A DNA stretch of 40,412 bases, taken from Firmicutes bacterium UBA3941 (GTDB lineage Bacteria; Bacillota; Clostridia; Caldicoprobacterales; UBA3941). The notes beneath the pieces were generated by a model. It worked only from the letters and a program-made list of their open reading frames with translations. It was not told the origin of the DNA and searched no databases. A program made the position numbers and the translations under genes. The DNA is taken from assembly GCA_002385665.1 (NCBI GenBank), contig DGDX01000066.1, forward strand, positions 28,348 through 68,759. The letters run 5' to 3'. This document shows positions 25,928-40,412 of this stretch, piece after piece (positions within the stretch are counted from its first letter, which is position 1; every line of letters starts with the position of its first letter).

Positions 25928-25977
25928 CAGACTAAATATATATATACCATACTTGCACTTAGAGAGGAGTGTATACC

Positions 25978-26376
25978 TTGGTTTTAAGGGTTATGATGGT
26001 AGACAGCAGCTATAAAGCCCGCAGGGATATAGACAACAAAGTAGATTGGGTTGAGAATGATTTTGAATTGGTTGGAGAGGCCAATAACGGTGAGGAAGGA
26101 TTGAGTCTCCTCCCCCACGTATCTCCCCATGTTATACTTACCGAAATCAGGTTGCCTAAAATGGATGGCATTACCTTCATCGAAACTGCAAAGAAGCGAT
26201 GGCCTAATATAAAGTATGTGATTGTCAGCAATTATGATAACTTCGATTACCTAAAGCAGGCTATGAGAGTGGGGGCCTACGACTATATCCTTAAGCCTGT
26301 GAAGCCAAACGAAATAAACCAGGTATTGCTCAGGGCAAAGGAAGAAATAGAAACAGGAGTGAAAAAATTCTTTTAG
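25978..26376 (+). CDS. Stand-alone receiver domain with Glu at the phosphorylation site
   Basis: 132 residues, one REC domain of the YesN type and nothing else. I chose TTG 25978 because AGAGGAG is eight bases upstream; a GTG at 25969 would overlap that site. The usual phosphoacceptor Asp (LTDIRMPxMDG) is Glu56 here (LTEIRLPKMDG). Of the acidic pair after strand 1, only Asp9 remains (VDSS). The switch Ser84 and the invariant Lys106 (LKP) are kept. A Glu at this position often mimics phosphorylation, so this may be a constitutively active or phosphorylation-independent adaptor. There is no DNA-binding domain and no kinase gene nearby. It converges on ybbR with one base between stop codons. Confidence 0.85.
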   Translation: MVLRVMMVDSSYKARRDIDNKVDWVENDFELVGEANNGEEGLSLLPHVSPHVILTEIRLPKMDGITFIETAKKRWPNIKYVIVSNYDNFDYLKQAMRVGAYDYILKPVKPNEINQVLLRAKEEIETGVKKFF

Positions 26377-26388
26377 CTTATTCTAAAA
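26371..26388. terminator. Small bidirectional hairpin between convergent genes
   Basis: TTTTAG (26371-26376) pairs with CTAAAA (26383-26388) around a 6-base loop. It spans both stop codons (TAG 26374-26376 plus; TAA 26380-26378 minus). It is short and AT-only, so termination is uncertain. Confidence 0.3.
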
Positions 26389-27595
26389 TCACCCTCAGGC
26401 TCCTGGGCTCTATTTCCACTATCTCCAGCCCTGGAGGCAGTTTATCAACCAATATGGGATAGGTCCTTCCGCCCCTCGAAGATTCATTGAGATCTACATA
26501 TAGTTTAAGGTCTTCAGCCTTAAAGGCGTTAACCAGACTCTGGGGACCTCTTATGGTTATAAACTTATCCCCTTCATCCTCTTCAACATTGGCTTCCAAT
26601 CCTTCGGCAATATTCCGCAATTCTATATCCTCAACGGAAACTTGTCTATCAACGATCTTTTCTATCCTTACCAAGACCTGGACTGTGGAATTTTGTCCGG
26701 GACTTAGCCTAATGCCTTCCTGCTGTTGCAGTTTTACTTCCCTAACGATATTACTGGTGGCACCCTGGATATCCAGTATCTCAGTTGGTATGGAATCCAA
26801 GGCCTCCAGGACCTCCGGGTCCCCATTAACGGTTACCTCTTTGGGTTTTATTTCCTCCCCCGTCACAACATAGCCGTCAGCCGGTTTGCCGGTAATGACC
26901 GCATCTACTGAGACAATTTTGTTTGGATAGACCGTTACTACACAATATTCAGGGTTTATGGTTATAAAGTCCAGATCCAGGGGCTCATCCTCATTGTTGA
27001 ACAATTGAACAGCAGACGAGCGCTCCAGTTTTTTATCCTTGTCGTCCCCTAATAAAACGGACACCTGGGCATATGCTGCAGTAGCAATGAGGCTTTCAGG
27101 GCCCCTGATCTCAATATTTCTGGGCTCAATTTCATAGAACCGTTTGCCCAGTTCCAGGCTGTCATCATCTTCTATCTTAGGTAGCACAGGGACTGATTTT
27201 GCTACTATTCTTTCCACGTTGATCTTTATATCGGGAGCAGACTTTATCTCAATGTTACTGGTACCTGGAAGTCCCTGAATTTCAACGCTGACACTCTGCT
27301 CACCAGTCTTGTTTACATCCGATAGGTTTAGAATAGCAACAATCTTGCTCCTATCCAAATATTTTACCATGCTGGCCTTGGCTCGGATATCAAAGCTGTA
27401 ACTGTCCGGTATCTCTGAGGATATCATCAGCCCGTTTTCCGTAAGCTTCTGCTGATTCTCAATTTTAATAGGAATGTCCCTAAAACTCATATCCCGTACA
27501 GGATCCTTGTTGCTTGGGGTCATGCTCCAAAGGATAAGGGCAATAACTACAGAAATTATCTTTAAGGTTATGTTTCTTTCAAAAAAGCTAGCCAT
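26378..27595 (-). CDS. ybbR: YbbR-domain protein, CdaA regulator (CdaR)
   Basis: 405 residues from ATG 27595, with AGGAGGTCC seven bases upstream inside the end of cdaA. One N-terminal membrane helix (about 9-25) is followed by an extracellular region of several repeated YbbR beta domains of about 80 residues, recognisable by recurring segments such as IEIRGPESLI, VTVNGDPEVL and ITIRGPQSLV. YbbR/CdaR binds and modulates the diadenylate cyclase CdaA at the membrane. The start overlaps the cdaA stop by eight bases. glmM, which usually completes this operon, is not next. Confidence 0.94.
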   Translation of the reverse strand: MASFFERNITLKIISVVIALILWSMTPSNKDPVRDMSFRDIPIKIENQQKLTENGLMISSEIPDSYSFDIRAKASMVKYLDRSKIVAILNLSDVNKTGEQSVSVEIQGLPGTSNIEIKSAPDIKINVERIVAKSVPVLPKIEDDDSLELGKRFYEIEPRNIEIRGPESLIATAAYAQVSVLLGDDKDKKLERSSAVQLFNNEDEPLDLDFITINPEYCVVTVYPNKIVSVDAVITGKPADGYVVTGEEIKPKEVTVNGDPEVLEALDSIPTEILDIQGATSNIVREVKLQQQEGIRLSPGQNSTVQVLVRIEKIVDRQVSVEDIELRNIAEGLEANVEEDEGDKFITIRGPQSLVNAFKAEDLKLYVDLNESSRGGRTYPILVDKLPPGLEIVEIEPRSLRVILE

Positions 27596-28445
27596 TTTTG
27601 GACCTCCTTCTAATAAAGCTAAAAGGCCCAACATCGTCATCCTTAATATATATCGAAGACAGGACATTTTTAAGGCCGTCTATATCCAAATATCTGGTAA
27701 GCCTGCCGCCGCTGGCCATGGATATAACACCGGTTTCTTCAGAAACTATTATAGCCAGGGCATCGGAGCTCTCTGATATTCCAAGGGCTGCCCGGTGGCG
27801 GGTACCCAATTGCTTGCTTAGATTTGGGTTCTCGGTTAGGGGTAGAAAACAACCGGCTGCAGCTACCCTATCACCCCGAATCACAACGGCACCGTCATGA
27901 AGTGGGGTGTTGGGTACAAAGATGTTTTCCAACAGCTCCCTGGTCAGCCTTGCGTCCAACCAAATCCCTGTTTCGATGATTTCGTTAATACCGGTATTCT
28001 TCTCAATCACTATAAGGGCGCCTACTCTGGTCTTGGACATATTGGCAACAGCCGCTGCGATGCCGTCTACAATGCTCTTTGCATCCATGTCATTTTCGTC
28101 ACGCAATAGACGGGATCTATCAAAAATACGGCCCCTGCCGATTTGCTCCAGGGCCCTTCTGATCTCGGGGTGAAAAACAATTACACCTGCTGTAATACCA
28201 AAGTTGATGGTATTTTCCAAGATCCATGCTATAGTATTTAACCTGAGCCACTTGGTTACAAAGTATATAAAGAAGAGAAAGACCAAACCCTTGAGTACCT
28301 GTTCTGCCCTGGTCTTTCTGATGAGCAATAGGAGCTGGTACAATACGAAGGCTACGACCGCAATATCTACTATATGACGAATAATATCTGGAAATTGTAA
28401 ATAGGGCTCTAATCGCTGCAGTAGATCAGATATAAACGGCCACAT
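27588..28445 (-). CDS. cdaA: Diadenylate cyclase CdaA
   Basis: Makes the second messenger cyclic di-AMP from two ATP; needed for potassium and cell-wall homeostasis in Firmicutes. 285 residues with three N-terminal membrane helices (about 22-42, 50-67, 72-90) and a cytoplasmic DAC domain. The catalytic motifs DGA (184-186) and RHR (216-218) are intact. The start has a GGGGGTGAAAAT site upstream. It is followed directly by ybbR. Confidence 0.96.
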   Translation of the reverse strand: MWPFISDLLQRLEPYLQFPDIIRHIVDIAVVAFVLYQLLLLIRKTRAEQVLKGLVFLFFIYFVTKWLRLNTIAWILENTINFGITAGVIVFHPEIRRALEQIGRGRIFDRSRLLRDENDMDAKSIVDGIAAAVANMSKTRVGALIVIEKNTGINEIIETGIWLDARLTRELLENIFVPNTPLHDGAVVIRGDRVAAAGCFLPLTENPNLSKQLGTRHRAALGISESSDALAIIVSEETGVISMASGGRLTRYLDIDGLKNVLSSIYIKDDDVGPFSFIRRRSKNG

Positions 28446-28772: not shown

Positions 28773-29771
28773 TTATCTGCCCCAATCCCCAACAATTCTT
28801 CGTAATGTCTCCCCGCAATTACCACATCTTCCTTCACGGGTAATACCCACGACATGGGCCCTGTAGTAACCCCTGTCAATCAGGGTGTTGCCGCAATTGT
28901 GGCAATAGGTGTTATTATCTGATTCCAACATATTGCCCAGATAGACATGGTTTAGATACCTATCCCCCAAGGCTTTCAATGCGGTCATGGTTTCCCTTGG
29001 GGTAGGTGGCAGATCCATTTGGTAGTTTGGAAAATACCGGGAGAGATGCAGGGGGATATCCGGATCTATCTCCATTATCCATTTAAACAGTCCTTCCATC
29101 TCCTTAATCCCATCATTGACCCCGCCGACTACCAGGGTGGTTAGCTCCACATGGCAATGCCCGGCAGCTAACTCTACTGTCTTTTTAACTGGTAATAGGC
29201 TTCCACCGCAGATCTCCCTGTAGTATTGATCGGTAAACCCTTTGACATCAATATTCATGGCGTCTATATAGGGTAATAACTCACCAAGGGGTTTAGGCAA
29301 GACATAACCGTTGGTAACCAGGACGATCTCCAGGTTATGTTCTCGTGCCAGGGTGCTGACATCAAGAATGTATTCATAGTTTATAATTGGCTCATTATAG
29401 GTAAAGGCAATGCCAACGCTATTCCTTTCCTTGGCCAAGGTCACCAGGTCCTCCGGAGAAATGTAGTGAGTTTCAGCCTTATTATGGGCAATATGCCAGT
29501 TTTGGCAGAATGAACACTTTAGGTTGCACCACAGCCCGCCAACGGACAGGATGTTCGAACCGGGATAGAAATGATAGAGGGGCTTTTTTTCTATGGGGTC
29601 CATGGCAATGGCGGATATATTACCATAGCCTTTGGCCATCAGCCCTCCGTCCACATTCATTCTCACGCGACAGTCTCCGCTTTTACCCTCCTCTATGATA
29701 CAAGCGTTGGGGCATAGAAGACACCGCACTTTTCCCTGTCCGGTTTTTGTATAGAATAGAGCCTCCCTCAT
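28773..29771 (-). CDS. AmmeMemoRadiSam system radical SAM enzyme
   Basis: 332 residues. The radical SAM cluster motif CNLKCSFC (Cys82, Cys86, Cys89) sits in a GLWCNLKCSFCQNWHI context. An N-terminal Cys set (17, 20, 24, 34) and a C-terminal zinc-ribbon-like set (290, 293, 316, 319) could bind further metal. This matches the radical SAM member of the conserved AMMECR1/MEMO/radical SAM trio, whose reaction and substrate are unknown. It is distantly like pyruvate formate-lyase activating enzymes. The start overlaps the upstream gene's stop as ATGA, so the two proteins are translationally coupled. Confidence 0.93.
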   Translation of the reverse strand: MREALFYTKTGQGKVRCLLCPNACIIEEGKSGDCRVRMNVDGGLMAKGYGNISAIAMDPIEKKPLYHFYPGSNILSVGGLWCNLKCSFCQNWHIAHNKAETHYISPEDLVTLAKERNSVGIAFTYNEPIINYEYILDVSTLAREHNLEIVLVTNGYVLPKPLGELLPYIDAMNIDVKGFTDQYYREICGGSLLPVKKTVELAAGHCHVELTTLVVGGVNDGIKEMEGLFKWIMEIDPDIPLHLSRYFPNYQMDLPPTPRETMTALKALGDRYLNHVYLGNMLESDNNTYCHNCGNTLIDRGYYRAHVVGITREGRCGNCGETLRRIVGDWGR

Positions 29772-31177
29772 GAGTGCCTGATCACCTCAAATCTTTGCAT
29801 AACATATTCTTCGTCCTCATCTATCCCGGCTTTTTGCAAGGCTATTTTGACCTGTTCCTGTGGTGTATCTATCCCCTCCAGGTTTGGAAGAAGAAGTCCA
29901 GACCTGGAGCCATGGCTGACTATTACTCCATATCTTTTCACGTCCAGTTCATCCAGGGTTTCTATGGGTTCCGGTTCCTTTAACACATCTACGGAGTAGA
30001 CCAGACTATCCAATTCCTCTTCCTCCACCGGGAAAAATCTGGGGTCCCTGGTACCGGCACTGATTGCGTTCTTCACTATTTCCCAGGCAATATTCTCCTG
30101 GGTTGCCTCTATGGTACCTATGCATCCCCGCAGCTGGCCGTACTGCTTGATAGTTACAAATACGCCTGCTCGGCTATTAAGCATGGGATTCGGCAGCCCG
30201 TCACCCAAATCCATAACCTTTCCGGTACGTATATAGGTTTCAAGGGATTCTCTGGCCAAACGTACATAGGCATCCTCTTTTTCCCTTATCCGCCTTATGC
30301 CAAGCTCATTGTTTCTTCTTAGCTTATCCATAAGCCGGCGGGAGTTGTCGGTATTCTCAGGCTCAAAGGAGGCTACACAATAACCAACTCCAAATGGCCC
30401 TTCATAGGACAGGACCTTAGATTTGAAGGCTTGTCCGTCCAAGGCGCCCATAGCCATGATAATAGATCGCAGGCCGCATTCCCCGCCCTCCCTTATGAGT
30501 GCCGGATCTATGGAAAATATTCCCTCAACGTCGCCCTTGGCTATCAAGGTCGTAATGGTTTTGTCCAGCTCCGGCCCTGAGGGGTGATAGCCATAAGGTC
30601 CATCCGCCTTCAAACGATGGGAAAGGTCTCCACTGGCGATTATGACAACATCCTTGTCCTGGGATTCTATCGCCCTTTTCATGGCGATTCCGAAAGCATA
30701 CAGTTCATGGAAGGGAAGATGGGAAACGCCCATGGTGACCAGTCTATATCCGGTAAAATACTTATTGACAAAGTATAGGGGTACCAAAACGCCCCAATCC
30801 AGAGAAGCTGGTATATTGTACGATGAACACATGGCTCCATCCAGGTCTATGGCCAATATTCCAACCCTTTGAGCTTCACGGATAATCCTTCCTATGAGGT
30901 CTTGGTTGGCTTGAAAGGTCATGGATACTTCAGGAGTACCAAATCGGGAAAAATCCCCTTCCAATACATCCTCTGACATAATACCGATTCCATCGGCAAA
31001 AACCGGACCATGGGGGCTTATTACAATAATCGTATCAGGGCTTTTGTCAGCGATCTCCTGCCCCAATACAGTCATAGAATCTATGGTTCTTTGGGCACCT
31101 TCCCTGTCCCTTCTCCCGACCTCTTCTACAATAATAGGCGGATGGGGAGATAAATACACTCCTAAGATCCTTCCCAT
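29768..31177 (-). CDS. MEMO/LigB-like and AMMECR1 fusion protein
   Basis: 469 residues. The N-terminal half (1 to about 272) is a class III extradiol dioxygenase/MEMO-type domain. It keeps residues matching the LigB metal site: His12 (SPHPP), His56 (SPHGP) and a Glu in REGGECG (230 or 233), plus His187 in SGDLSH as a possible catalytic base. The C-terminal half (about 280-469) is an AMMECR1 domain with the invariant LRGCIGT at 349-355. Both are members of the AmmeMemoRadiSam system, here fused in one chain. AAAGGAG lies about eight bases before ATG 31177. The reaction is unknown; retained metal ligands suggest an active metalloenzyme rather than a scaffold. Confidence 0.93.
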   Translation of the reverse strand: MGRILGVYLSPHPPIIVEEVGRRDREGAQRTIDSMTVLGQEIADKSPDTIIVISPHGPVFADGIGIMSEDVLEGDFSRFGTPEVSMTFQANQDLIGRIIREAQRVGILAIDLDGAMCSSYNIPASLDWGVLVPLYFVNKYFTGYRLVTMGVSHLPFHELYAFGIAMKRAIESQDKDVVIIASGDLSHRLKADGPYGYHPSGPELDKTITTLIAKGDVEGIFSIDPALIREGGECGLRSIIMAMGALDGQAFKSKVLSYEGPFGVGYCVASFEPENTDNSRRLMDKLRRNNELGIRRIREKEDAYVRLARESLETYIRTGKVMDLGDGLPNPMLNSRAGVFVTIKQYGQLRGCIGTIEATQENIAWEIVKNAISAGTRDPRFFPVEEEELDSLVYSVDVLKEPEPIETLDELDVKRYGVIVSHGSRSGLLLPNLEGIDTPQEQVKIALQKAGIDEDEEYVMQRFEVIRHS

Positions 31178-31269: not shown

Positions 31270-31983
31270 TTACGCATCGGATAGATAGCTTATGATCCCA
31301 CAATATATGGCCCATGCTACCTCTTCCTGGTACTCGTCCGTCGCAAGCAATTGCTCTTCCTGAGGATTGGATAAAAAACCGCACTCTACCAATACCGATG
31401 GGCTGTCTACCGCCTTCAGGATTAAATAGCTGTCAGATGCCTTAATCTCCCTTTTATTTCCCCGGTCCAATATGCGTATCAATTGCTGTTGAATGGATTC
31501 GGCCAAGCGTTTTCCTTCTTCGCTGCCCTTCAAATAGAAGGTCTGAGCCCCATAATACTGAGACTGTCCGAACTTATTTAAATGAATGCTGATTACCAGA
31601 TCCGGTTGGGATTTTTGGAGGATTTCTACCCTCCTTGTCATATCCTGTCGCTTCCTGGAACCGGTATAATTTTGGTCATATAGGCCGTCATGGGTCTTTC
31701 GTGTCATTACGACCTTTGCGCCTTCATTCTCCAAATAGGCTTGAAGTTTCTTCGCGATCTTTAAGTTGATCTCGTCCTCACGGATCCCCGTCGGGCTTAC
31801 AGCCCCCGGATCAATTCCCCCATGGCCGGCATCGATGGCAATGGTTACACCATATGCCGGGGATCCGAATACCGACAAGGCCTGCCGTTCACGTATCTTT
31901 ACAACATATGAAATAGCAATAATGATGCCCAGAATAATCCAAAACACCAGTAATGTTTTTCTGCTAATGTAATAGACCCTCAT
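31270..31983 (-). CDS. cwlD: N-acetylmuramoyl-L-alanine amidase CwlD-like
   Basis: 237 residues from ATG 31983 (TTTGGGGG seven bases upstream), the same length as Bacillus CwlD. One N-terminal anchor helix (about 8-28) is followed by an Amidase_3 domain with zinc ligands in DAGHGG, REDEINL and SIHLN, and the catalytic Glu in VECGFLSN. CwlD acts in spore cortex maturation by helping form muramic-delta-lactam. General cell-wall amidase is the alternative, but size and anchor favour CwlD. It is evidence that the organism sporulates. A TATAAT (32024-32019, minus) lies upstream without a clear -35. Confidence 0.88.
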   Translation of the reverse strand: MRVYYISRKTLLVFWIILGIIIAISYVVKIRERQALSVFGSPAYGVTIAIDAGHGGIDPGAVSPTGIREDEINLKIAKKLQAYLENEGAKVVMTRKTHDGLYDQNYTGSRKRQDMTRRVEILQKSQPDLVISIHLNKFGQSQYYGAQTFYLKGSEEGKRLAESIQQQLIRILDRGNKREIKASDSYLILKAVDSPSVLVECGFLSNPQEEQLLATDEYQEEVAWAIYCGIISYLSDA

Positions 31984-32155
31984 ATGCAAACCCCCAAAAT
32001 CCTAAGACGAATCGTATTATTATAGGATATTCTTCAGGGAGCTTGCTTTATGAATCTTTTCTATGCAGCTACACTGGGGATTTTAACAGGGCATCTTCTT
32101 TAGTTTATTCTATCATAATATTATGGATGTTCCAATAAAGGTGGAAATCATTGGT

Positions 32156-35100
32156 TCAGATCTCTCCCATGATTACTCTTACACTATGTCTACCGTCCCC
32201 TTCCACCAGGGGAATCACCTTATCCTCAAGCTTCAGATCGTCCAGCCACATTTCTCTGACTCCTCTATTCACCCTGTCAGGGTTCTCTACCCTTATATCA
32301 TAGATGGTACTTCTATATCTGTAGGTCATATTAAAGCCCTCCCAGCTTGCAGGTATGCAAGGGTCGATATAGAGTCTGTCCCCCCGAAGCTTTAATCCGA
32401 GAATCCACTCTATTCCCACCCGGTACATCCAGGATGAGGAGCCGGTGTACCATGTCCAGCCGCCACGTCCAACATGAGGCTCTACGGCATATACATCGGC
32501 AGCCATAACGTAGGGTTCCGTCTTGTACCGACTGATCTCGTACCATGTCCGTCCATGGTTAATGGGGTTGATCATATTGAAAAATTCCCAGGCCTTGTCC
32601 CCGTCCCCCTGTATTGCCTTGGCCATAATGGACCAGATTGCGCCATGGGTATATTGGCCACCATTCTCCCTGACCCCGGGTACGTATCCCTTGATATATC
32701 CCGGTTCCAGATGAGATCTGTCAAAGGGTGGTGACAAAAGCTGTATCAATCCCTCCTCCCTCCTTACCAGATGCCTCTCCAGGGAGTCCATGGCGATCTT
32801 TGCTCTGTTTGGATCGGCAGCCCCTGAGATTACGGACCAGGATTGGGATATGGCATCGATTTGGCATTCCTGGTTTTGCTCGGAGCCAAGGGGCGTACCG
32901 TCGTCAAAATATGCCCTTCTGTACCATCCACCATCCCATCCGTGTCTGTCTATGGCCTCCTTTAGAGATTTGGCCACCTCCTTATACCTTTGAGCCCTTT
33001 CCATGTCATTCCGCCTCTGGCATATTGGGATAAATTTATCAAGAACGGTATACAGGAACCATCCCAGCCAGACACTTTCGCCCTGGCCTCCGATACCGAC
33101 CTTGTCCATGCCATCGTTCCAGTCCCCTTCTCCCATAAGGGGCAATCCGTGCCGGCCAAAGGCAAGGGATTTTTCTATAGCCTTTACACAATGGTCATAA
33201 ATGCTCTCCTTGTAATGGGAAACCTCCGGTAAATTGTATCTATCCCATTCCCCCTCCCTCAGGGGTTCGTCCACCAAATAGTGGGTCATCTCATCCAGTA
33301 TGTCCCAATCTCCTGTACCCTGTATGTAATCCGCCGTGACAAAGGGCAGGAACAACAGATCGTCGGTGATTCTGGTCCTGATTCCCCTATGGGGCGGATG
33401 CCACCAATGCTGAACATCCCCTTCTTCGTACTGATGTTCGCTGTGAAGAAGTATTTGCCTCTTCACCCTATCCGGATCGCTGTATACCAAGGCCAAAACA
33501 TCCTGTAATTGATCCCTGAATCCATATGCGCCCCCGGCCTGGTAAAAACCGGTTCTGGCCATAATCCTACAGCTCAGGGTCTGGTATACCAGCCATCTGT
33601 TAAGCATAATGTCCATAGACATATCGGGGGTGCTGACTGTAATGGCGCTGAGCCTTTCATCCCAGATCCGTTTCGTCTCCTCCAGTGCTTCCTGGGCAGC
33701 ATTGGTGTTGGTATAGTCCCCGATAATCCGTCTTGCCTGGGATTCATCGTCCCCCTGGCCCAATACAAAGACCAGTTCTTCCTCTTCTCCGGGTCCTATC
33801 TCCAATGCCACCTGAATAACACCGCAAGGGTCAAATCCAGGCCCAACACGGTTGGACAGACTTGCCCGTCCCAGGGCCGCCGGATCCGCCAAGGTTCCGT
33901 TCCTGCCAATGAACTCCGTTCTATCTCCTGTAAAGCCTATATAGGGCTTATCACTGGCTATAAAGGCTACCCTATCGCCAAATTCCCCATTATATGGGTT
34001 AATGGCAAATAAGGCGTTTAAACTCCTATCCTCCTTGGTCATAATAAATTGGTTATTGGGAATTGGATTGACTCCGCAAACCCATTCTACATAGAAGGTT
34101 ATGGTCAGGCTCCTTGTCCTGTCGGAGTCGTTGACAAGCCCTATATGGTAATATTTGACCGGCTGATGGGGGGCTACAAACATGGTCTGTCTTTGCCTCA
34201 ATTTATTTCTGTCATATTCAAAGACGGTATAGCCCTGACCGTGCCGTACGGTATAATCGCCATCGGTGCGAATGGGGGCCGGAGCAATGGACCAGACAGC
34301 CCCGGAATCCTCATCCCTTATATATACCGCCTCACCCACAGGGTCCACAACGGGGTCATTGGACCAGGGGGTCAATTTGTTCTCCCGGCTATTGCCGTAC
34401 CAGGTATATCCTGCCCCGGATTCCGTTACCAGAAAACCCAAAACTTCATTGGCTATAACATTGCTCCAGGGTAGTGGAGTGGCATTGCCCTTGCGAATTC
34501 TTATTTCATATTCCTTTCCACCCGGCGTAAACCCGCCAATATCGTTAAAGTATATAAGCTCCCCATTCTTCTTTATTTCATCCTTGCACTCCTGCTCGAT
34601 ACCGGAGAATTCCTTTATATCCGGAAGCTTGTCAATAGTATCATTGCCCTCTATCTGGGAAGCCAGAGAGCCCAGCTCACCGTCAATTACAATCCTGGAT
34701 GCAAAGGCCAACAGATTTTTGTCCACATCGGGCATCAGATTGCCCGGGAGCAGGTATACCCCTCCCGGCTTATCCTGCAGCTCCCTTAGGTGGCTGACGG
34801 TCAGCATCTCCCTCAGGCGATCCTGAACGGGCTGTTCATAGCTGTTGCCATAATCATTTAGTATCACCAGGTCAACCAGTATCCCCTTAAGCCGCCAGTA
34901 TTCATGAATGGATAACATCTGCCTGACCATTTCCAGTTGCTCGGTATTGGTTATCCTGATGGTTGCTATGGGAAGATCTCCTGAAATACCGTAGGTCCAC
35001 AGCCTGGTCTGGTCCTCTTCATTCACGATATCCTTCAAGAGGGCTCTTCTGGCTGGATTTGTGTATATTATGGAGGAGAGCATCTTTTGGTAGAGGCTCA

Positions 35101-38100
35101 CTTCCGCCGATGAAATGTTCAGATACCTCATCTCAACCTGGCTATGGGTCCAAGCCAATTCAAAGGCCCTGGCTATAACCGCTGCACTTCGGTATTCCCT
35201 GGCCAGATTTATTACCTCTTCCCTGGTATCGGCAACAACTACCATATAGGATAGCTTGGCTGCCTGACCGGGGCCTATGCCAACCCGCTGTCTTAGGCTC
35301 ATAATGGGATCCAATACAGCCCCCACGGTATTGCTAAGGGGCTGATCCGGATCCATGGCCTTTGGATTCCTAAGTTCACGATTTCGGCCGATAAACTTGG
35401 ACCTGTCGGATTCGTACTGCACGACCCCTATTGGATCGCCTTCTACTACCAAGGTGTGGGCCATCCACATCTGTTTCTGGTCCTTGCTCCTGGGCCTCCG
35501 GGTCATGACCAATATTTCATGCTCCGGTATATACTCGGTCTTAACGAACAGGTTGGTAAAAGCCGGATGAGCGGTATCGTCCCCTTGTCTCGTCAGGATT
35601 GGTTCAAAATAGCTGGTAACCTCCATTACCCTTTCGTGTTCACTATGATTGTTCAAGGTAATCCTTCGGATCTCAACGCTATGCTCGGGAGATACCACTA
35701 TCTCCGTTCTTGTTTCAATGTTGCCGTCCTGCCGTTGGAATACGGCCTTATCGCCTTCGAAGACCACCTCATACTTGTCTCCGGAATCAAGACAAGGCTG
35801 GTATGCCGATGACCAAAAGTGTCCGGAGTTAAGATTCTTAATATAGAAGAACATACCCCAATTATCCCTGGTTACATCCTCCCGCCAACGGTTGATAGCC
35901 AACCCTTGATATTGGCTGAAGCCCCCACCGCTATTGGTGACGATGGTTGTATAGTGGTTATTGGATAGTACACAAACCTCAGGAGAGGGGGTGTGGGGAG
36001 TATCTATTATATTTCTCGTATGGATTTCATGGAAGGATTTCATATCCTTATCCATATCCGGGATATCTGAAGCTTCACTATGCTCCTTGATTATGATTTC
36101 CTTTTGCGGGATCCTCTCCTGTAGCAATAGTTCCGTAGCCCTTATCATGGGTACAGCATGGAAGCGCTCCTGCATAACACAGTTATTTAAATAGTTGTTA
36201 AAGGCCAGGAGTATCATCCCCTGGTGGTGGGCCATATAGGTCTTGACCAGCATGCTCTTTTTCCTACTGGGAACCCTTTCAGGCGTATAGTCGATGGATT
36301 CATACATTCCATAGCTGCCGCTGGCCCCTTCCGATTCCAGATACTCGATGTTCTTCATAACGGCCCGGGGATCGATAGTCAGCCCCATTATGGAGGCATA
36401 GGGGGCCACCACCATATCCTTTATAAGCCCTTTTTTTAGACCCAACTTTGGCACTCCAAAGGCTTTATACTGATAGTTTAGTTGTAGATCGAAGGCATAG
36501 AAAGCAGATTCGGAAACTCCCCAGGGTAAATGCCTCTGATCGCTGTACTGCCTCTGCCCCATTAAGACGGCCTGGTATGTTTCATCCCAGAGGGTGTTCC
36601 TGTAGTTTTTCATTATAAGCAGGGGCATCAGATACTCAAACATGGTACCGCCCCAGGACAGCAGGCTCCGGGAATCGCCCACCATGGTTAAAGATCTGGC
36701 CAGCTTAAACCAGTGTTTCTGTGGAACATCCCCCTTTGCAATGGCTACAAAGCTGGTTTGCCTGGCTTCAGAAGCCAACAGATCGTAGTAGACATCCTGC
36801 AGTTCTCCGGCTTCGATATCGTATCCAATAGAAAATAACTCCTTCTTCTTATCATAGAGGGCACCAAAATCCATATTCTGAAATATTTCATCTATGTTGT
36901 CCATGAGCTTCTTACACCGGCGGGCCATTTTTCTTGCAGCCATATGGGATTCCCCCAGAGCGATCTCCAGCTGTTTCAACCAGGCAGCCACTCCATTGGT
37001 TTGCCTGTCCGGGTTTTTGGTCCGCCTCAGGGACAGGATCATATTGGATAGCTGATCCAAAATATTGGGGTAATCATCCAAGATCTTTTTGAAGGAAAAC
37101 TCCATGTTCAGCTTGTCCATAAGGATGCCAAAGCTTTCCTTTGCCTCAATAGGTAATCCATTTTCACCTAAAATGCTCTTTGGAACATCCAACAAAAGGT
37201 CCACCCAGGGAACCACGGTAGCCATCTCTTCCCTAAATTGTTCTATCTGCCTGTCCGTATAATCCCCAATGTTTCCCAATTGGTTCAAGGTCAGCTTCCA
37301 TTCCGTCAGGGTGATGTTTTCGCTGACCTCCAACATATTTATGATGGAGGGTATGGATCTCCCGGTATTTTCGAAGTCCAGGCCTATGGTATCCCTGAGC
37401 CCAAGGGCCATCTCCCTGCCTATCAAGGGTCTTGATAGGAGCTCACCTATCCCCTGCTTAAGCAGGATAAGGTAGCAGGCCAAATTCCCGCTGTCCACAG
37501 AGGAGACATACCTGGGTTTTAAAGGCTCCAAGGTGCGGGTATTATACCAGTTATAGTAGTGTCCATTCCATTTTTCCATGCGCTTTAGGGTGCTTATGGT
37601 GTTTTCAAATCTTTCTATGGCTTGGGTAGTGCTTATATAGCCCAGATCCCTGGCCGTCAGTGTCGACATCAGGGCCAGGCCTATATTGGTAGGTGAAGTC
37701 CTATGGGCTATCCCCACATGGGGTTCTTCCTGGTAGTTATCGGGGGTCAGCCAATTATCTTCAGGACCCACGAACTCATCGAAGTATTTCCAGGTCTTTC
37801 TGGCTATCATCCGCAACTTATATACCTGTTCCTTCGATAGATCGGATTCCCTCCTGTACTTGGGCTGGCTTATCCTGTAGGCAATCAAGGGTGACAAGAG
37901 CCAAACAAGGGATATTACCAAGGGTATAAACAAGAGGGATTGTCTAAAGGTTACCACCCAGATAAAAAAGGCGACTGAGATCAGCATGGCTGGGAACATT
38001 TTTTTCCAATAATCCTCCAGGGTCCCCTTGAACCTTCTATCGGTGTCTGCGGCGGTAACCCACTCCAACAGGTTTTTTCTGGTGAAAAACACCCTGACTA

Positions 38101-40412
38101 TGGACCTTATTATGGCATCGGTCATGAGGTATGCCTGATGGGCTAAAAATACAAAGGTCAGAATGATCTGCATGGCCAAATTTTTGGTTCCGTACAGGAT
38201 ATCCCCCAGGAATCGATTGGAAGAACCCACCCTTCCCAGGAAGGAAGCCACAACATCCATCAATAAGGGCATGGTTAGGGTTATGGTGAATAGCCCCAGC
38301 CAAAACCAATCGGCCCTTGGCAGAACGGTCAAACCCAGAGTTAAGAGAAGAAAAAGGGATGGGGGCAAAAGGCTTCTTCGCAAATTGTCGAAGATCTTCC
38401 ACTTTGAAATTGCAGATAGGGGATTCTTTACCCTTTCCCCCTTTGCATTACGAACCTTACCAAAAAGCCATGGTACCAGCTGCCAATCGCCCCTTACCCA
38501 CCTATGGGACCGCATGGCATAGGAAATATAGTTGGCCGGATAGCCGTCGATCAGCTCAATATCGGTAACAAGGCCCGCCCTTATATAGGACCCTTCCAAA
38601 AGGTCGTGGCTCAGTATACTGTTTTCAGGTATTTGAGAGCCTAATACCTCATTGAATACATCTACATCAAAGGCCCCTTTACCTGTGAAGATTCCCTCAC
38701 AGAAAAGGTCCTGATATACATCGGAGACCGCGGTGGTATAAGGATCTACCCCCGTCTGTCCCGAAAAGGTCAGTGCAAATGAAGAACGGCTGGCGCTGTC
38801 CACTGAAACGCCGATCCTGGGCTGCAAGACCCCATAACCCTTGACTACTCTGTTTAGGGTTTTATCGACTATGGGCCGATTAAGAGGATGGGCCAGGGTT
38901 CCTACCAGGCGTTTAGCCACATCCCTTGGGAGGTTGGTATCAGCATCCAAAGTTATTACGTACTTTATTTTGGGGAGTACGGATAGATCTCCCACTTGTG
39001 TTGAAAAGCTGGTGTTCTCATTCCCCCTGAGGAGGCTGGTGAATTCCACCAGGGCTCCCCTCTTCCGGTCCCAACCCATCCATGATTCCTGGGAAGGGGC
39101 CCATTGCCTGTGTCGATGGAAGAAAAAGAAAATCCCGCCGTCTTCACGGCCATACCTCTCGTTTAACTCCCCTACCGCCCTGGTAGCCGCTTCTATGATG
39201 GCTTCATCATCGGGCTCCTTTTCATTCCTGGAATCCTTAAAATCCCCTACCAGAGCGAAATGGATATTGTCCCCCTGATTTGCTAAATAGAATACCTCCA
39301 TCTGCTCAATAAGTTCCCAGACCCTTTTTTCACTGGTTAAAAGGGTCGGGATAATCACCATGGTGCGATATTCCTCAGGTATCCCTTCCTCCAGTTCCAG
39401 CTTGGGCAGATAACAGGGGCGCAAGATCCTGGGGATGATCCAGTGCATCAGGCCAACGGCCAATGTTATCACGGGGATCAAAAGCACAATCCCGGACAGC
39501 ACCAGAAGTAGCGGATTCTGTTCCTGATCCAGGCCATTTAGATAAACTAACATCAAAAACATCGTGACTGCAACAATAATCCCGATGGATCCCAAATAAA
39601 AGGCAGTGGGATGTTCCTTGATCCAGTTCCCTTTCGGGTTCCTGCCGCCTAACCTTGCTTCCAGGTCCTTCCTTCCCTCATCTACAAGGTAATACCCTAC
39701 ATGCCCCAACCTGATGTCTTCTCCATTGGATTCCATTGCATCCTTTGCGATATCGACAGCCAGTCTGGCTACATCCAGTTCGCTTACTCTATACTTTCTG
39801 GCAATCTTCACCAGCCCGGCCCTGTAGTAATTGCGGGATGTGAATTCCATTTTGGAATAAAAACCTGAGGGATCCTGGTTTAAAATATGGTCTAAACTGC
39901 TTAATTCCTCAAAAATCTCTTCCCATCTTATGGATAATAAGAACTTCAAACTAATTATGTAATTTCCTATGGAAACCTGGTAATCGCCCTGCTGCTCTCG
40001 TACCGTCTGTATCAGCTCATCGGAATTGGTACCCTGAAGCGCCAATTTCCCATCCAACCACATCAAAAGGGATGTACCCTTGCTTCCGCTGTCACGAAAA
40101 ACCCGCAGCATCCCCTCTGCGTAAGGGGGCAGCATATACCCGATTTCCCTGTCGTGTTCCATGATAAGGCGCTGGAGTTCTTCTCCCGGAGCGTCGACGT
40201 TATCAACTAACAGAGTCCCCCACTTGCGTCCATGATTCTTTTGGTTTTGGTATTCTACTATATCTACTGCCCTTTCCCTGATTTTCTTTATCAGGGATAC
40301 CTTGATCATCAGAGGCAGTATCCACAACTCACCGTTGTTTAACGGAGTGACAGATTGATATTCCTTTAGGAAGCCTATTATAGGCTCCTCCTCCAATTGT
40401 CCGGATCTATAG
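32156..40412 (-). CDS. Cyclic beta-1,2-glucan synthase (N-terminus outside window)
   Basis: At least 2751 residues; the frame stays open to the right edge, so the N-terminus is missing. Domain order, numbered from codon 40396: two membrane helices (about 265-325); a glycosyltransferase family 84 domain with the DXD motif LDADTNLP (about 480-487); further helices (about 690-840); a middle glycoamylase-like domain matching the cyclisation (GH189) part (GMYESIDYTPERVPSRKKS near 1362); two beta-supersandwich units (about 1480 and 1990); and a C-terminal GH94 domain with GEGDWNDGMD near 2423, holding the catalytic Asp. Family members build beta-1,2-glucan chains from UDP-glucose, cyclise them, and trim length by phosphorolysis. 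The best known are proteobacterial NdvB/Cgs, but clostridial members exist. No glucan exporter is in the window. Confidence 0.94.
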   Translation of the reverse strand, partial: YRSGQLEEEPIIGFLKEYQSVTPLNNGELWILPLMIKVSLIKKIRERAVDIVEYQNQKNHGRKWGTLLVDNVDAPGEELQRLIMEHDREIGYMLPPYAEGMLRVFRDSGSKGTSLLMWLDGKLALQGTNSDELIQTVREQQGDYQVSIGNYIISLKFLLSIRWEEIFEELSSLDHILNQDPSGFYSKMEFTSRNYYRAGLVKIARKYRVSELDVARLAVDIAKDAMESNGEDIRLGHVGYYLVDEGRKDLEARLGGRNPKGNWIKEHPTAFYLGSIGIIVAVTMFLMLVYLNGLDQEQNPLLLVLSGIVLLIPVITLAVGLMHWIIPRILRPCYLPKLELEEGIPEEYRTMVIIPTLLTSEKRVWELIEQMEVFYLANQGDNIHFALVGDFKDSRNEKEPDDEAIIEAATRAVGELNERYGREDGGIFFFFHRHRQWAPSQESWMGWDRKRGALVEFTSLLRGNENTSFSTQVGDLSVLPKIKYVITLDADTNLPRDVAKRLVGTLAHPLNRPIVDKTLNRVVKGYGVLQPRIGVSVDSASRSSFALTFSGQTGVDPYTTAVSDVYQDLFCEGIFTGKGAFDVDVFNEVLGSQIPENSILSHDLLEGSYIRAGLVTDIELIDGYPANYISYAMRSHRWVRGDWQLVPWLFGKVRNAKGERVKNPLSAISKWKIFDNLRRSLLPPSLFLLLTLGLTVLPRADWFWLGLFTITLTMPLLMDVVASFLGRVGSSNRFLGDILYGTKNLAMQIILTFVFLAHQAYLMTDAIIRSIVRVFFTRKNLLEWVTAADTDRRFKGTLEDYWKKMFPAMLISVAFFIWVVTFRQSLLFIPLVISLVWLLSPLIAYRISQPKYRRESDLSKEQVYKLRMIARKTWKYFDEFVGPEDNWLTPDNYQEEPHVGIAHRTSPTNIGLALMSTLTARDLGYISTTQAIERFENTISTLKRMEKWNGHYYNWYNTRTLEPLKPRYVSSVDSGNLACYLILLKQGIGELLSRPLIGREMALGLRDTIGLDFENTGRSIPSIINMLEVSENITLTEWKLTLNQLGNIGDYTDRQIEQFREEMATVVPWVDLLLDVPKSILGENGLPIEAKESFGILMDKLNMEFSFKKILDDYPNILDQLSNMILSLRRTKNPDRQTNGVAAWLKQLEIALGESHMAARKMARRCKKLMDNIDEIFQNMDFGALYDKKKELFSIGYDIEAGELQDVYYDLLASEARQTSFVAIAKGDVPQKHWFKLARSLTMVGDSRSLLSWGGTMFEYLMPLLIMKNYRNTLWDETYQAVLMGQRQYSDQRHLPWGVSESAFYAFDLQLNYQYKAFGVPKLGLKKGLIKDMVVAPYASIMGLTIDPRAVMKNIEYLESEGASGSYGMYESIDYTPERVPSRKKSMLVKTYMAHHQGMILLAFNNYLNNCVMQERFHAVPMIRATELLLQERIPQKEIIIKEHSEASDIPDMDKDMKSFHEIHTRNIIDTPHTPSPEVCVLSNNHYTTIVTNSGGGFSQYQGLAINRWREDVTRDNWGMFFYIKNLNSGHFWSSAYQPCLDSGDKYEVVFEGDKAVFQRQDGNIETRTEIVVSPEHSVEIRRITLNNHSEHERVMEVTSYFEPILTRQGDDTAHPAFTNLFVKTEYIPEHEILVMTRRPRSKDQKQMWMAHTLVVEGDPIGVVQYESDRSKFIGRNRELRNPKAMDPDQPLSNTVGAVLDPIMSLRQRVGIGPGQAAKLSYMVVVADTREEVINLAREYRSAAVIARAFELAWTHSQVEMRYLNISSAEVSLYQKMLSSIIYTNPARRALLKDIVNEEDQTRLWTYGISGDLPIATIRITNTEQLEMVRQMLSIHEYWRLKGILVDLVILNDYGNSYEQPVQDRLREMLTVSHLRELQDKPGGVYLLPGNLMPDVDKNLLAFASRIVIDGELGSLASQIEGNDTIDKLPDIKEFSGIEQECKDEIKKNGELIYFNDIGGFTPGGKEYEIRIRKGNATPLPWSNVIANEVLGFLVTESGAGYTWYGNSRENKLTPWSNDPVVDPVGEAVYIRDEDSGAVWSIAPAPIRTDGDYTVRHGQGYTVFEYDRNKLRQRQTMFVAPHQPVKYYHIGLVNDSDRTRSLTITFYVEWVCGVNPIPNNQFIMTKEDRSLNALFAINPYNGEFGDRVAFIASDKPYIGFTGDRTEFIGRNGTLADPAALGRASLSNRVGPGFDPCGVIQVALEIGPGEEEELVFVLGQGDDESQARRIIGDYTNTNAAQEALEETKRIWDERLSAITVSTPDMSMDIMLNRWLVYQTLSCRIMARTGFYQAGGAYGFRDQLQDVLALVYSDPDRVKRQILLHSEHQYEEGDVQHWWHPPHRGIRTRITDDLLFLPFVTADYIQGTGDWDILDEMTHYLVDEPLREGEWDRYNLPEVSHYKESIYDHCVKAIEKSLAFGRHGLPLMGEGDWNDGMDKVGIGGQGESVWLGWFLYTVLDKFIPICQRRNDMERAQRYKEVAKSLKEAIDRHGWDGGWYRRAYFDDGTPLGSEQNQECQIDAISQSWSVISGAADPNRAKIAMDSLERHLVRREEGLIQLLSPPFDRSHLEPGYIKGYVPGVRENGGQYTHGAIWSIMAKAIQGDGDKAWEFFNMINPINHGRTWYEISRYKTEPYVMAADVYAVEPHVGRGGWTWYTGSSSWMYRVGIEWILGLKLRGDRLYIDPCIPASWEGFNMTYRYRSTIYDIRVENPDRVNRGVREMWLDDLKLEDKVIPLVEGDGRHSVRVIMGEI

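What the first reader, a model, noticed from the sequence alone, without database searches (positions are those of the whole stretch)
28773..31177. Complete AmmeMemoRadiSam locus condensed into two coupled genes
Seen: a MEMO/LigB-like domain fused to an AMMECR1 domain in one protein, overlapping by ATGA with a radical SAM gene. Known: these three families co-occur across bacteria and archaea, but the reaction is not established; human AMMECR1 and MEMO1 are disease-linked. Inference: the fusion and coupling imply fixed stoichiometry, with radical SAM and dioxygenase-like sites possibly working on one substrate. LigB-type ligands (His12, His56, Glu230/233, His187) appear intact. Neighbours are cwlD and cdaA, but gene order alone does not prove a cell-envelope link.
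Basis: partly seen in the sequence, partly recalled or inferred. Interest (0 to 1): 0.72.

Follow-up and report, generated by a model that had tools for sequence, protein, structure and literature searches.

The report
Common two-gene AmmeMemoRadiSam locus
This is an ordinary bacterial copy of a widespread three-part enzyme set of unknown function, here packed into two touching genes; that packing is the usual one in its relatives, and the suspected oxygen-using active site does not look like a normal ring-cutting enzyme.

Summary
Window 29768-31177 (-) encodes one 469-aa protein, a LigB/Memo-superfamily domain plus AMMECR1, and overlaps by ATGA the radical SAM gene 28773-29771 (-). All three NCBI AmmeMemoRadiSam models pass their cut-offs. 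But the two-gene form is ordinary: of 119 genomes of the phylum, 93 carry the main AMMECR1 gene, 92 of these also a strong radical SAM match; 82 are fused to LigB, and 78 have fusion plus radical SAM downstream.

The reaction stays unknown. cwlD upstream is conserved synteny, not functional proof. Side find: lone Memo or AMMECR1 paralogs sit beside alpha-2-macroglobulin genes.

The parts
29768..31177 (-). Fused AmmeMemoRadiSam protein B/A, 469 aa: LigB/Memo-superfamily domain + AMMECR1 domain
   Evidence: ORF; PF02900 + PF01871; TIGR04335 and TIGR04336 over cut-off; AlphaFold model mean pLDDT 92.4
30377..31162 (-). LigB domain (residues 6-267), LigB/Memo fold
30476..30478 (-). Codon of Cys234, invariant, candidate third metal ligand beside Glu233
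   Evidence: 90 of 90, 59 of 59 in an alignment of the window and 58 of the 120 listed homologues
30794..30796 (-). Codon of Trp128, at the position of the catechol-binding His of LigB (His127)
   Evidence: His in 86 of 90 homologues; Trp in 23 of 59 near relatives incl. the window; alignment to BvDOD; residue role in PMC11926856 (passages)
29786..30268 (-). AMMECR1 domain (residues 304-464)
30113..30133 (-). LRGCIGT motif with Cys352 of AMMECR1, in a strand of the model
   Evidence: 89 of 90, the other a gap; strand 348-354
29768..29771 (-). ATGA stop/start overlap of the two genes
   Evidence: read directly; GTGA at the same place in L004
28773..29771 (-). AmmeMemoRadiSam radical SAM enzyme, 332 aa
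29505..29528 (-). CxxxCxxC cluster motif (Cys82, Cys86, Cys89)
   Evidence: 88 of 88 each
31270..31989 (-). cwlD, upstream neighbour on the same strand
   Evidence: TIGR02883 over cut-off; within three ORFs upstream in 45 of 90 loci
27588..28445 (-). cdaA (diadenylate cyclase), downstream neighbour after 327 bases
   Evidence: TIGR00159; its cluster is found in 12 of 93 stretches, the window included
26378..27667 (-). ybbR-like gene after cdaA
   Evidence: PF07949

Best explanation
It is a normal Bacillota copy of the AmmeMemoRadiSam set, a presumably cytosolic metal and radical enzyme pathway. Shown here: family membership, co-occurrence, order, conserved residues and predicted folds. Inferred: the radical SAM protein, built on a pyruvate formate-lyase-activase core with a four-Cys N-terminal element and a C-terminal Cys4 element, makes a 5'-deoxyadenosyl radical. 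It acts on a macromolecular substrate presented by the AMMECR1 domain, whose LRGCIGT motif is nearly invariant. The LigB/Memo domain, with a two-His metal site completed by Cys234 or Glu233, carries out a second, oxygen-independent step. Fusion and overlap keep the two steps together. An RNA base is my first guess for the substrate, a protein my second.
Against: No substrate, activity or complex was tested. The ribosomal-protein neighbours may be inherited order only, and argC, argJ and argB neighbours are about as frequent (27, 25 and 21 of 93 stretches). The closest fold of the radical SAM is a protein-modifying activase, which favours a protein substrate over RNA. G100 keeps AMMECR1 and radical SAM with a broken LigB half, and G023 has the fusion without a radical SAM match, so the three parts are not strictly inseparable. 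Carriers and non-carriers do not differ clearly in having any terminal oxidase (23 of 93 against 11 of 26, p 0.09).
Confidence: 0.35

Rival explanations
1. The radical SAM protein is a dedicated maturase of the AMMECR1 domain: it puts a radical or a cross-link on the Gly-Cys of LRGCIGT, and the matured protein is the real enzyme.
For: PFL-activase is by far the closest fold, including an entry with bound peptide (3CB8). The motif is nearly invariant (89 of 90). The genes overlap or lie 0-30 bases apart in 62 of 86 loci. G100 keeps AMMECR1 and radical SAM although LigB is broken.
Against: G023 carries the fusion without a radical SAM match. Lone AMMECR1 paralogs keep the motif's Cys (RGC in three and RAC in one of four read) with no radical SAM hit in the stretch fetched around them, though each of those genomes has the main locus elsewhere. 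A shared fold shows no substrate.
Confidence: 0.17
2. The LigB half is a working class III extradiol dioxygenase that opens an aromatic ring with O2.
For: PF02900 168.6 bits; top structural neighbours are TK2203 and dioxygenases; His12, His56, His187 conserved; Glu233 sits in the LigB Glu register in the HMMER alignment.
Against: Trp128 replaces the catechol-binding His in this clade; Glu233 is Gln or Thr in 9 of 90; 70 of 93 carriers have no terminal oxidase match; none of the seven neighbouring genes scanned looks like aromatic catabolism.
Confidence: 0.05
3. The set handles iron or protects clusters, as MEMO1 does for iron in human cells, with the radical SAM protein as client or partner.
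Against: Among the 26 recurrent gene clusters whose sequences were printed I recognised no iron-transport or cluster-assembly gene (by eye). It does not explain AMMECR1.
Confidence: 0.12
4. The locus belongs to spore cortex or envelope physiology through cwlD and cdaA.
For: cwlD within three ORFs upstream in 45 of 90 loci; cdaA cluster in 12 of 93 stretches.
Against: Of 26 genomes without the main AMMECR1 gene, the best cwlD-like match has rplM-rpsI upstream in operon orientation in 4 and convergent in 1, so that linkage does not need the system. The control searches find the families also in archaea and Thermotoga.
Confidence: 0.06

Closest known systems
NCBIfam AmmeMemoRadiSam system, TIGR04335 / TIGR04336 / TIGR04337 (gene names amrB and amrS seen; amrA recalled)
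   Same: All three models over cut-off, genes adjacent; closest named homologue, 90% identical, is already called AmmeMemoRadiSam system protein A [Caldicoprobacterales bacterium] (P0002)
   Different: A and B fused, which is the usual form here (82 of 93); the B part scores low on the B model (31.7 bits)
amrB-amrS of Segatella hominis and Ideonella dechloratans plasmids
   Same: Two genes: a fused protein ending in AMMECR1, then radical SAM
   Different: N-terminal half matches Pfam Memo (193.7 and 154.4 bits), not LigB
TK2203 (PDB 5HEE) and LigB-type class III extradiol dioxygenases
   Different: Third ligand uncertain, catechol-binding His is Trp, no known activity
Human MEMO1 (PDB 7KQ8)
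   Different: No Pfam Memo match at E <= 0.001; fused to AMMECR1; counterpart of H131 is Trp128
Pyruvate formate-lyase activating enzyme (PDB 3CB8)
   Different: Extra N-terminal Cys4 element and C-terminal Cys4 element; PFLA model far below its cut-off (45.6 of 231.75 bits); no glycyl radical enzyme among the neighbours scanned

Membership tests
AmmeMemoRadiSam system | Protein A model TIGR04335 over its cut-off | tested here: met
   132.5 bits, cut-off 99
AmmeMemoRadiSam system | Protein B model TIGR04336 over its cut-off | tested here: met
   31.7 bits, cut-off 26, best stretch covers profile 133-250 of 270
AmmeMemoRadiSam system | Radical SAM model TIGR04337 over its cut-off, beside A/B | tested here: met
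   307.2 bits, cut-off 220, ATGA overlap
AmmeMemoRadiSam system | Common biochemical function | not testable with these tools
   No reaction is established in the material seen; the system name occurs in five held papers, once each (listing only)
LigB class III extradiol dioxygenase | PF02900 domain and fold | tested here: met
LigB class III extradiol dioxygenase | Two His metal ligands and the acid His195 | tested here: met
   H12 and H56 in 88 of 90 (two gaps), H187 in 90 of 90
LigB class III extradiol dioxygenase | Glu as third ligand | tested here: inconclusive
   The HMMER alignment puts E251 of 3VSG on Glu233, but Glu233 is Glu in 81 of 90 and the next residue Cys234 is Cys in 90 of 90
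LigB class III extradiol dioxygenase | Catechol-binding His (LigB His127 / BvDOD His119) | tested here: not met
   Trp128 at that position
LigB class III extradiol dioxygenase | Ring cleavage with O2 | not testable with these tools
   Needs enzyme assay
Memo (Pfam PF01875) | Match to PF01875 | tested here: not met
   No match at E <= 0.001 for the protein or in the window genome; the B domains of 10 of the 93 carriers do match at that level, 9 over the cut-off
Memo (Pfam PF01875) | 2-His-1-Cys metal site as in MEMO1 | tested here: inconclusive
   His pair and invariant Cys present, but alignments do not agree on the register of the Cys: ungapped with Asp222 of TK2203 (my count), shifted by three in the Memo profile comparison
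Glycyl radical enzyme activase (PFL-AE type) | PFLA model TIGR02493 over cut-off | tested here: not met
   45.6 bits, cut-off 231.75
Glycyl radical enzyme activase (PFL-AE type) | CxxxCxxC motif and core fold | tested here: met

The most novel reading that the evidence does not exclude
AMMECR1 and Memo/LigB domains are oxygen-independent, Cys-centred protein-modifying modules. In the cell they work with a PFL-activase-like radical SAM enzyme. Exported paralogs of either domain have been recruited to alpha-2-macroglobulin proteins, AMMECR1 to thioester-bearing ones and Memo to ones without the motif. The window's clade (Trp128 with Trp81 in its radical SAM partner) would then be a further specialised variant.
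Probability: 0.1. Interest if true: 0.75.

Novelty: new member of a known kind. Interest (0 to 1): 0.3.

Why it matters
MEMO1 and AMMECR1 are disease-linked in people (from the finding and recall; MEMO1's molecular function is called unknown in PMC11081632, abstract) and their chemistry is unknown. A two-gene bacterial set is a compact system in which to find it. The survey gives tests that separate the models: Cys234 against Glu233 as ligand, Trp128 as a natural loss of the catechol site, and natural exceptions (G100, G023, G034) that show which parts can be lost. The locus itself is ordinary.

Tried and rejected
Unusual condensation was rejected: fusion is the majority form (82 of 93), and the 120 listed homologues, of 7998 scored, all carry both domains (the length filter of that search favours such proteins). 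A second AMMECR1 match in the genome was not found (the draft is 83% complete). A second LigB gene is a separate, truncated 4,5-DOPA-dioxygenase-like gene at a contig edge (the likeness is by eye).

Ligand register: MAFFT, hhalign and HMMER place Cys234 differently against Memo and LigB, so no ligand is claimed as shown. Lone Memo sequences gave no MEMO1 match in the PDB (its three weak hits are HopQ and an outer membrane protein); a plasmid amrB did. The genome-contig scan gave one locus only.

An oxygen test gave a mixed result: any terminal oxidase 23 of 93 carriers against 11 of 26 non-carriers, p 0.09; COX1 alone 9 of 93 against 8 of 26, p 0.012 (genomes are related, so p values are rough). 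Promoter and terminator scans gave 13 against 10.3 and 5 against 4.3 expected and say nothing on operon limits.

Plasmid search with a lone Memo: three hits named amrB. Two are Memo-AMMECR1 followed by amrS; the third (Rhizobium) is Memo with a capsule-type domain, without AMMECR1 and with no amrS annotated in the stretch.

Literature: AmmeMemoRadiSam is named in five held papers, seen as a listing only; AMMECR1 with amrB none; AMMECR1 since 2022, 73 papers, titles and abstract starts of 30 seen, none about its enzymology; AMMECR1 with alpha-2-macroglobulin two papers, seen as a listing, both on human or mouse gene expression. Two key papers are not held: the 2019 PCAD-Memo study and the RAGNYA fold paper.

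Full report
What is there. Two genes lie on the - strand: 29768-31177 (469 aa) and 28773-29771 (332 aa), overlapping in the four bases ATGA. A ribosome-binding-like AAGGAG lies seven bases before the first ATG (my reading). The first protein has a LigB domain (residues 6-267) and an AMMECR1 domain (304-464); the second is a radical SAM protein. All three AmmeMemoRadiSam models of NCBIfam pass their cut-offs. On either side are cwlD, 92 bases upstream, and cdaA-ybbR, 327 bases downstream. The genome (G000, unnamed) is an 83%-complete draft of 2.06 Mb. The 90%-identical homologue is named as from a Caldicoprobacterales bacterium (P0002). A named Clostridiales draft shows the same six genes in the same order, with a GTGA overlap (L004; gene identities there by eye, except the fusion, found by tblastn).

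It is the usual form. I searched 119 genomes drawn evenly from the phylum, the window's own included, for the radical SAM family, AMMECR1, LigB and Memo and combined the places. I used the 100 strongest radical SAM matches, down to 112 bits, and left out the weaker ones (47 bits and less), taken by score as other radical SAM enzymes; the list is itself cut at its weak end. Of 98 AMMECR1 matches I set aside five weak ones (85-99 bits) that form another group. The main AMMECR1 gene is in 93 genomes, a strong radical SAM match in 93 (90 over the family's cut-off; one of the other three, G034, is a remnant), both in 92; 25 of 119 have neither. LigB and AMMECR1 share one open frame in 82 of 93; an 83rd, G035, is in frame by its coordinates but failed the rule. 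Eight have them in separate frames, one (G011) is split or frame-shifted and one (G100) lacks a LigB match. Radical SAM lies within 1.5 kb in 90 of 93, downstream in 88; fusion plus downstream radical SAM in 78. Exceptions: G001 (the contig ends there), G029 (unlinked), G023 (no radical SAM match), G014 and G099 (radical SAM first). In 86 loci where both ORFs were called on one strand, 9 have exactly a 4-base overlap, 27 some overlap, and 35 lie 0-30 bases apart (starts are first start codons, so overlaps are upper limits; two further negative values are reversed orders). Outside the phylum, plasmids of Ideonella and Segatella carry a Memo-AMMECR1 fusion followed by amrS; a third plasmid hit, in Rhizobium, does not.

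The metal site. From 93 stretches (92 fetched loci and the window) my ORF caller gave 90 LigB-domain, 90 AMMECR1 and 88 radical SAM sequences; it missed two or three on the wrong strand, and the others lack the gene in the stretch. In the 90 LigB sequences His12 and His56 are present in 88 (two gaps), Asp184, His187 and Cys234 in 90, Glu233 in 81 (Gln 8, Thr 1), Glu230 in 16. In an alignment of the window and 58 of the 120 listed homologues Cys234 is 59 of 59, Glu233 52 of 59. In human MEMO1 iron is held by H49, H81 and C244, matching H12, H61 and E242 of LigB (PMC11081632, passages). H49, H81, D189 and H192 correspond to H12, H56, D184 and H187 here by motif (my reading). For the third ligand the alignments disagree by one to three residues: HMMER aligns E251 of 3VSG with Glu233 but Asp222 of TK2203 with Cys234 (residue numbers by my count), and hhalign shifts Memo's Cys by three. 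Invariance favours Cys234; it is not proved. In the superfamily the third ligand varies (Glu in LigB, His in BvDOD; PMC11926856, passages). The same paper names two His that bind the catechol, LigB His127 and His195. His195 is His187 here, but the His127 position, by alignment to BvDOD His119, is Trp128. That position is His in 86 of 90 homologues and Trp in 23 of 59 near relatives. So the site is not an intact catechol dioxygenase site.

Oxygen. Of 93 carriers 70 show neither COX1 over cut-off nor cytochrome bd; non-carriers 15 of 26; the difference is not clear (p 0.09), while COX1 alone is rarer in carriers (9 of 93 against 8 of 26, p 0.012). Missing oxidases do not prove anaerobic life and drafts are incomplete, but a core function that needs O2 is unlikely.

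Neighbours. In the 93 stretches, clusters of cwlD-like amidase occur in 55, rplM in 32, rpsI in 30, argC in 27, argJ in 25, argB in 21 and cdaA in 12 (lower limits, since the ORF caller misses genes and many stretches end at contig ends; names beyond cwlD, cdaA and ybbR are my reading of the printed sequences). cwlD is within three ORFs upstream in 45 of 90. Among 26 genomes without the main AMMECR1 gene, the best cwlD-like match, over its family's cut-off in 7 of 26, has rplM-rpsI upstream in operon orientation in 4 and convergently in 1, within about 1.5 kb. So the place looks like an old syntenic block.

Natural exceptions. In G100 (one contig) only the two ends of the LigB half remain, in different frames, while the AMMECR1 and radical SAM frames are open; an assembly error is not excluded. 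In G034 only the last third of the radical SAM gene remains, directly after cwlD. One suggests that the LigB half can be lost alone, the other that fusion and radical SAM can go together.

Mechanism. Shown: identity, linkage, conserved residues, predicted folds. Inferred: radical chemistry by the radical SAM protein on something held by AMMECR1, a second metal-dependent step by the LigB half, no need for O2. The substrate is a guess. A 2019 comparative study of the PCAD-Memo superfamily (Burroughs et al.; recalled, not held; Memo-Ammecr1 systems are cited to Burroughs et al. 2019 in PMC7159879, passages) had, as I recall, already described Memo-AMMECR1-radical SAM association and pointed to nucleotide-base modification. 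Interest is therefore modest.

Side line. Of 17 genomes with a Memo match, 10 matches lie in the B domain of the main locus and 7 are lone Memo genes. These seven sit directly beside an alpha-2-macroglobulin gene (7 of 7), and four of five weak-class AMMECR1 genes do too. The fifth, G001, is at a contig end, with its A2M gene on another contig. A2M occurs in 16 of 119 genomes; the other four have it beside a bifunctional penicillin-binding protein gene (three of the four scanned by Pfam; the fourth not scanned). Pfam confirms A2M in the four large proteins I scanned (L181, L188, L189, L191). The CxEQ thioester motif is in 0 of 7 Memo-linked, 5 of 5 AMMECR1-group (G001 counted) and 4 of 4 PBP-linked A2M proteins. 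Export of Memo and AMMECR1 there is read from hydrophobic N-termini by eye; no signal-peptide program was run.

Noticed in passing
L188-L194 (G047, G116, G075, G061, G023, G106, G109): Lone Memo proteins, most with hydrophobic or lipobox-like N-termini by eye, lie directly beside an alpha-2-macroglobulin-family gene in 7 of 7 cases; none of these seven A2M proteins has a CxEQ thioester motif.
   Followed up: partly
L178-L181 (G049, G088, G114, G078); L177 and L201 (G001): Lone AMMECR1 proteins of a weak class (open frames 250-315 aa, membrane-anchored by eye) lie directly beside an A2M gene with a GCVEQ thioester motif in 4 of 5 cases; the fifth is at a contig end.
   Followed up: partly
L183:4159-5352 (+) and L182:5099-6187 (-): Radical SAM paralogs with a Tat- or lipobox-like N-terminus by eye; in L183 the next gene is a long protein with a spermine synthase domain, in L182 a similar long gene lies nearby.
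   Followed up: partly
window 30794-30796 and radical SAM residue 81 (codon at 29529-29531): Trp128 in the LigB half and Trp81 before the CxxxCxxC motif of the partner occur together in the window (the only one of 86 survey loci) and in L004; elsewhere His and Gly are the rule. A possible paired change in this clade.
   Followed up: partly
L099:8998-9945 (G100): Only the two ends of the LigB half remain, in different frames, while AMMECR1 and the radical SAM gene stay open.
   Followed up: partly
L187, G034:C8:61848-62210: Remnant of the radical SAM gene directly after cwlD, the rest of the locus gone.
   Followed up: partly
window 32156-40396: 2746-aa protein with GH94 catalytic, supersandwich and glucoamylase domains upstream of cwlD; a 2862-aa protein, similar by eye, is in the same place in L004.
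   Followed up: no
G000:C95:14-547 (L003): A second LigB gene in the window's genome, at a contig edge, similar by eye to 4,5-DOPA dioxygenases.
   Followed up: no
window 25969-26376: Lone response-regulator receiver gene on the + strand between ybbR and an ftsW/rodA-like gene.
   Followed up: no
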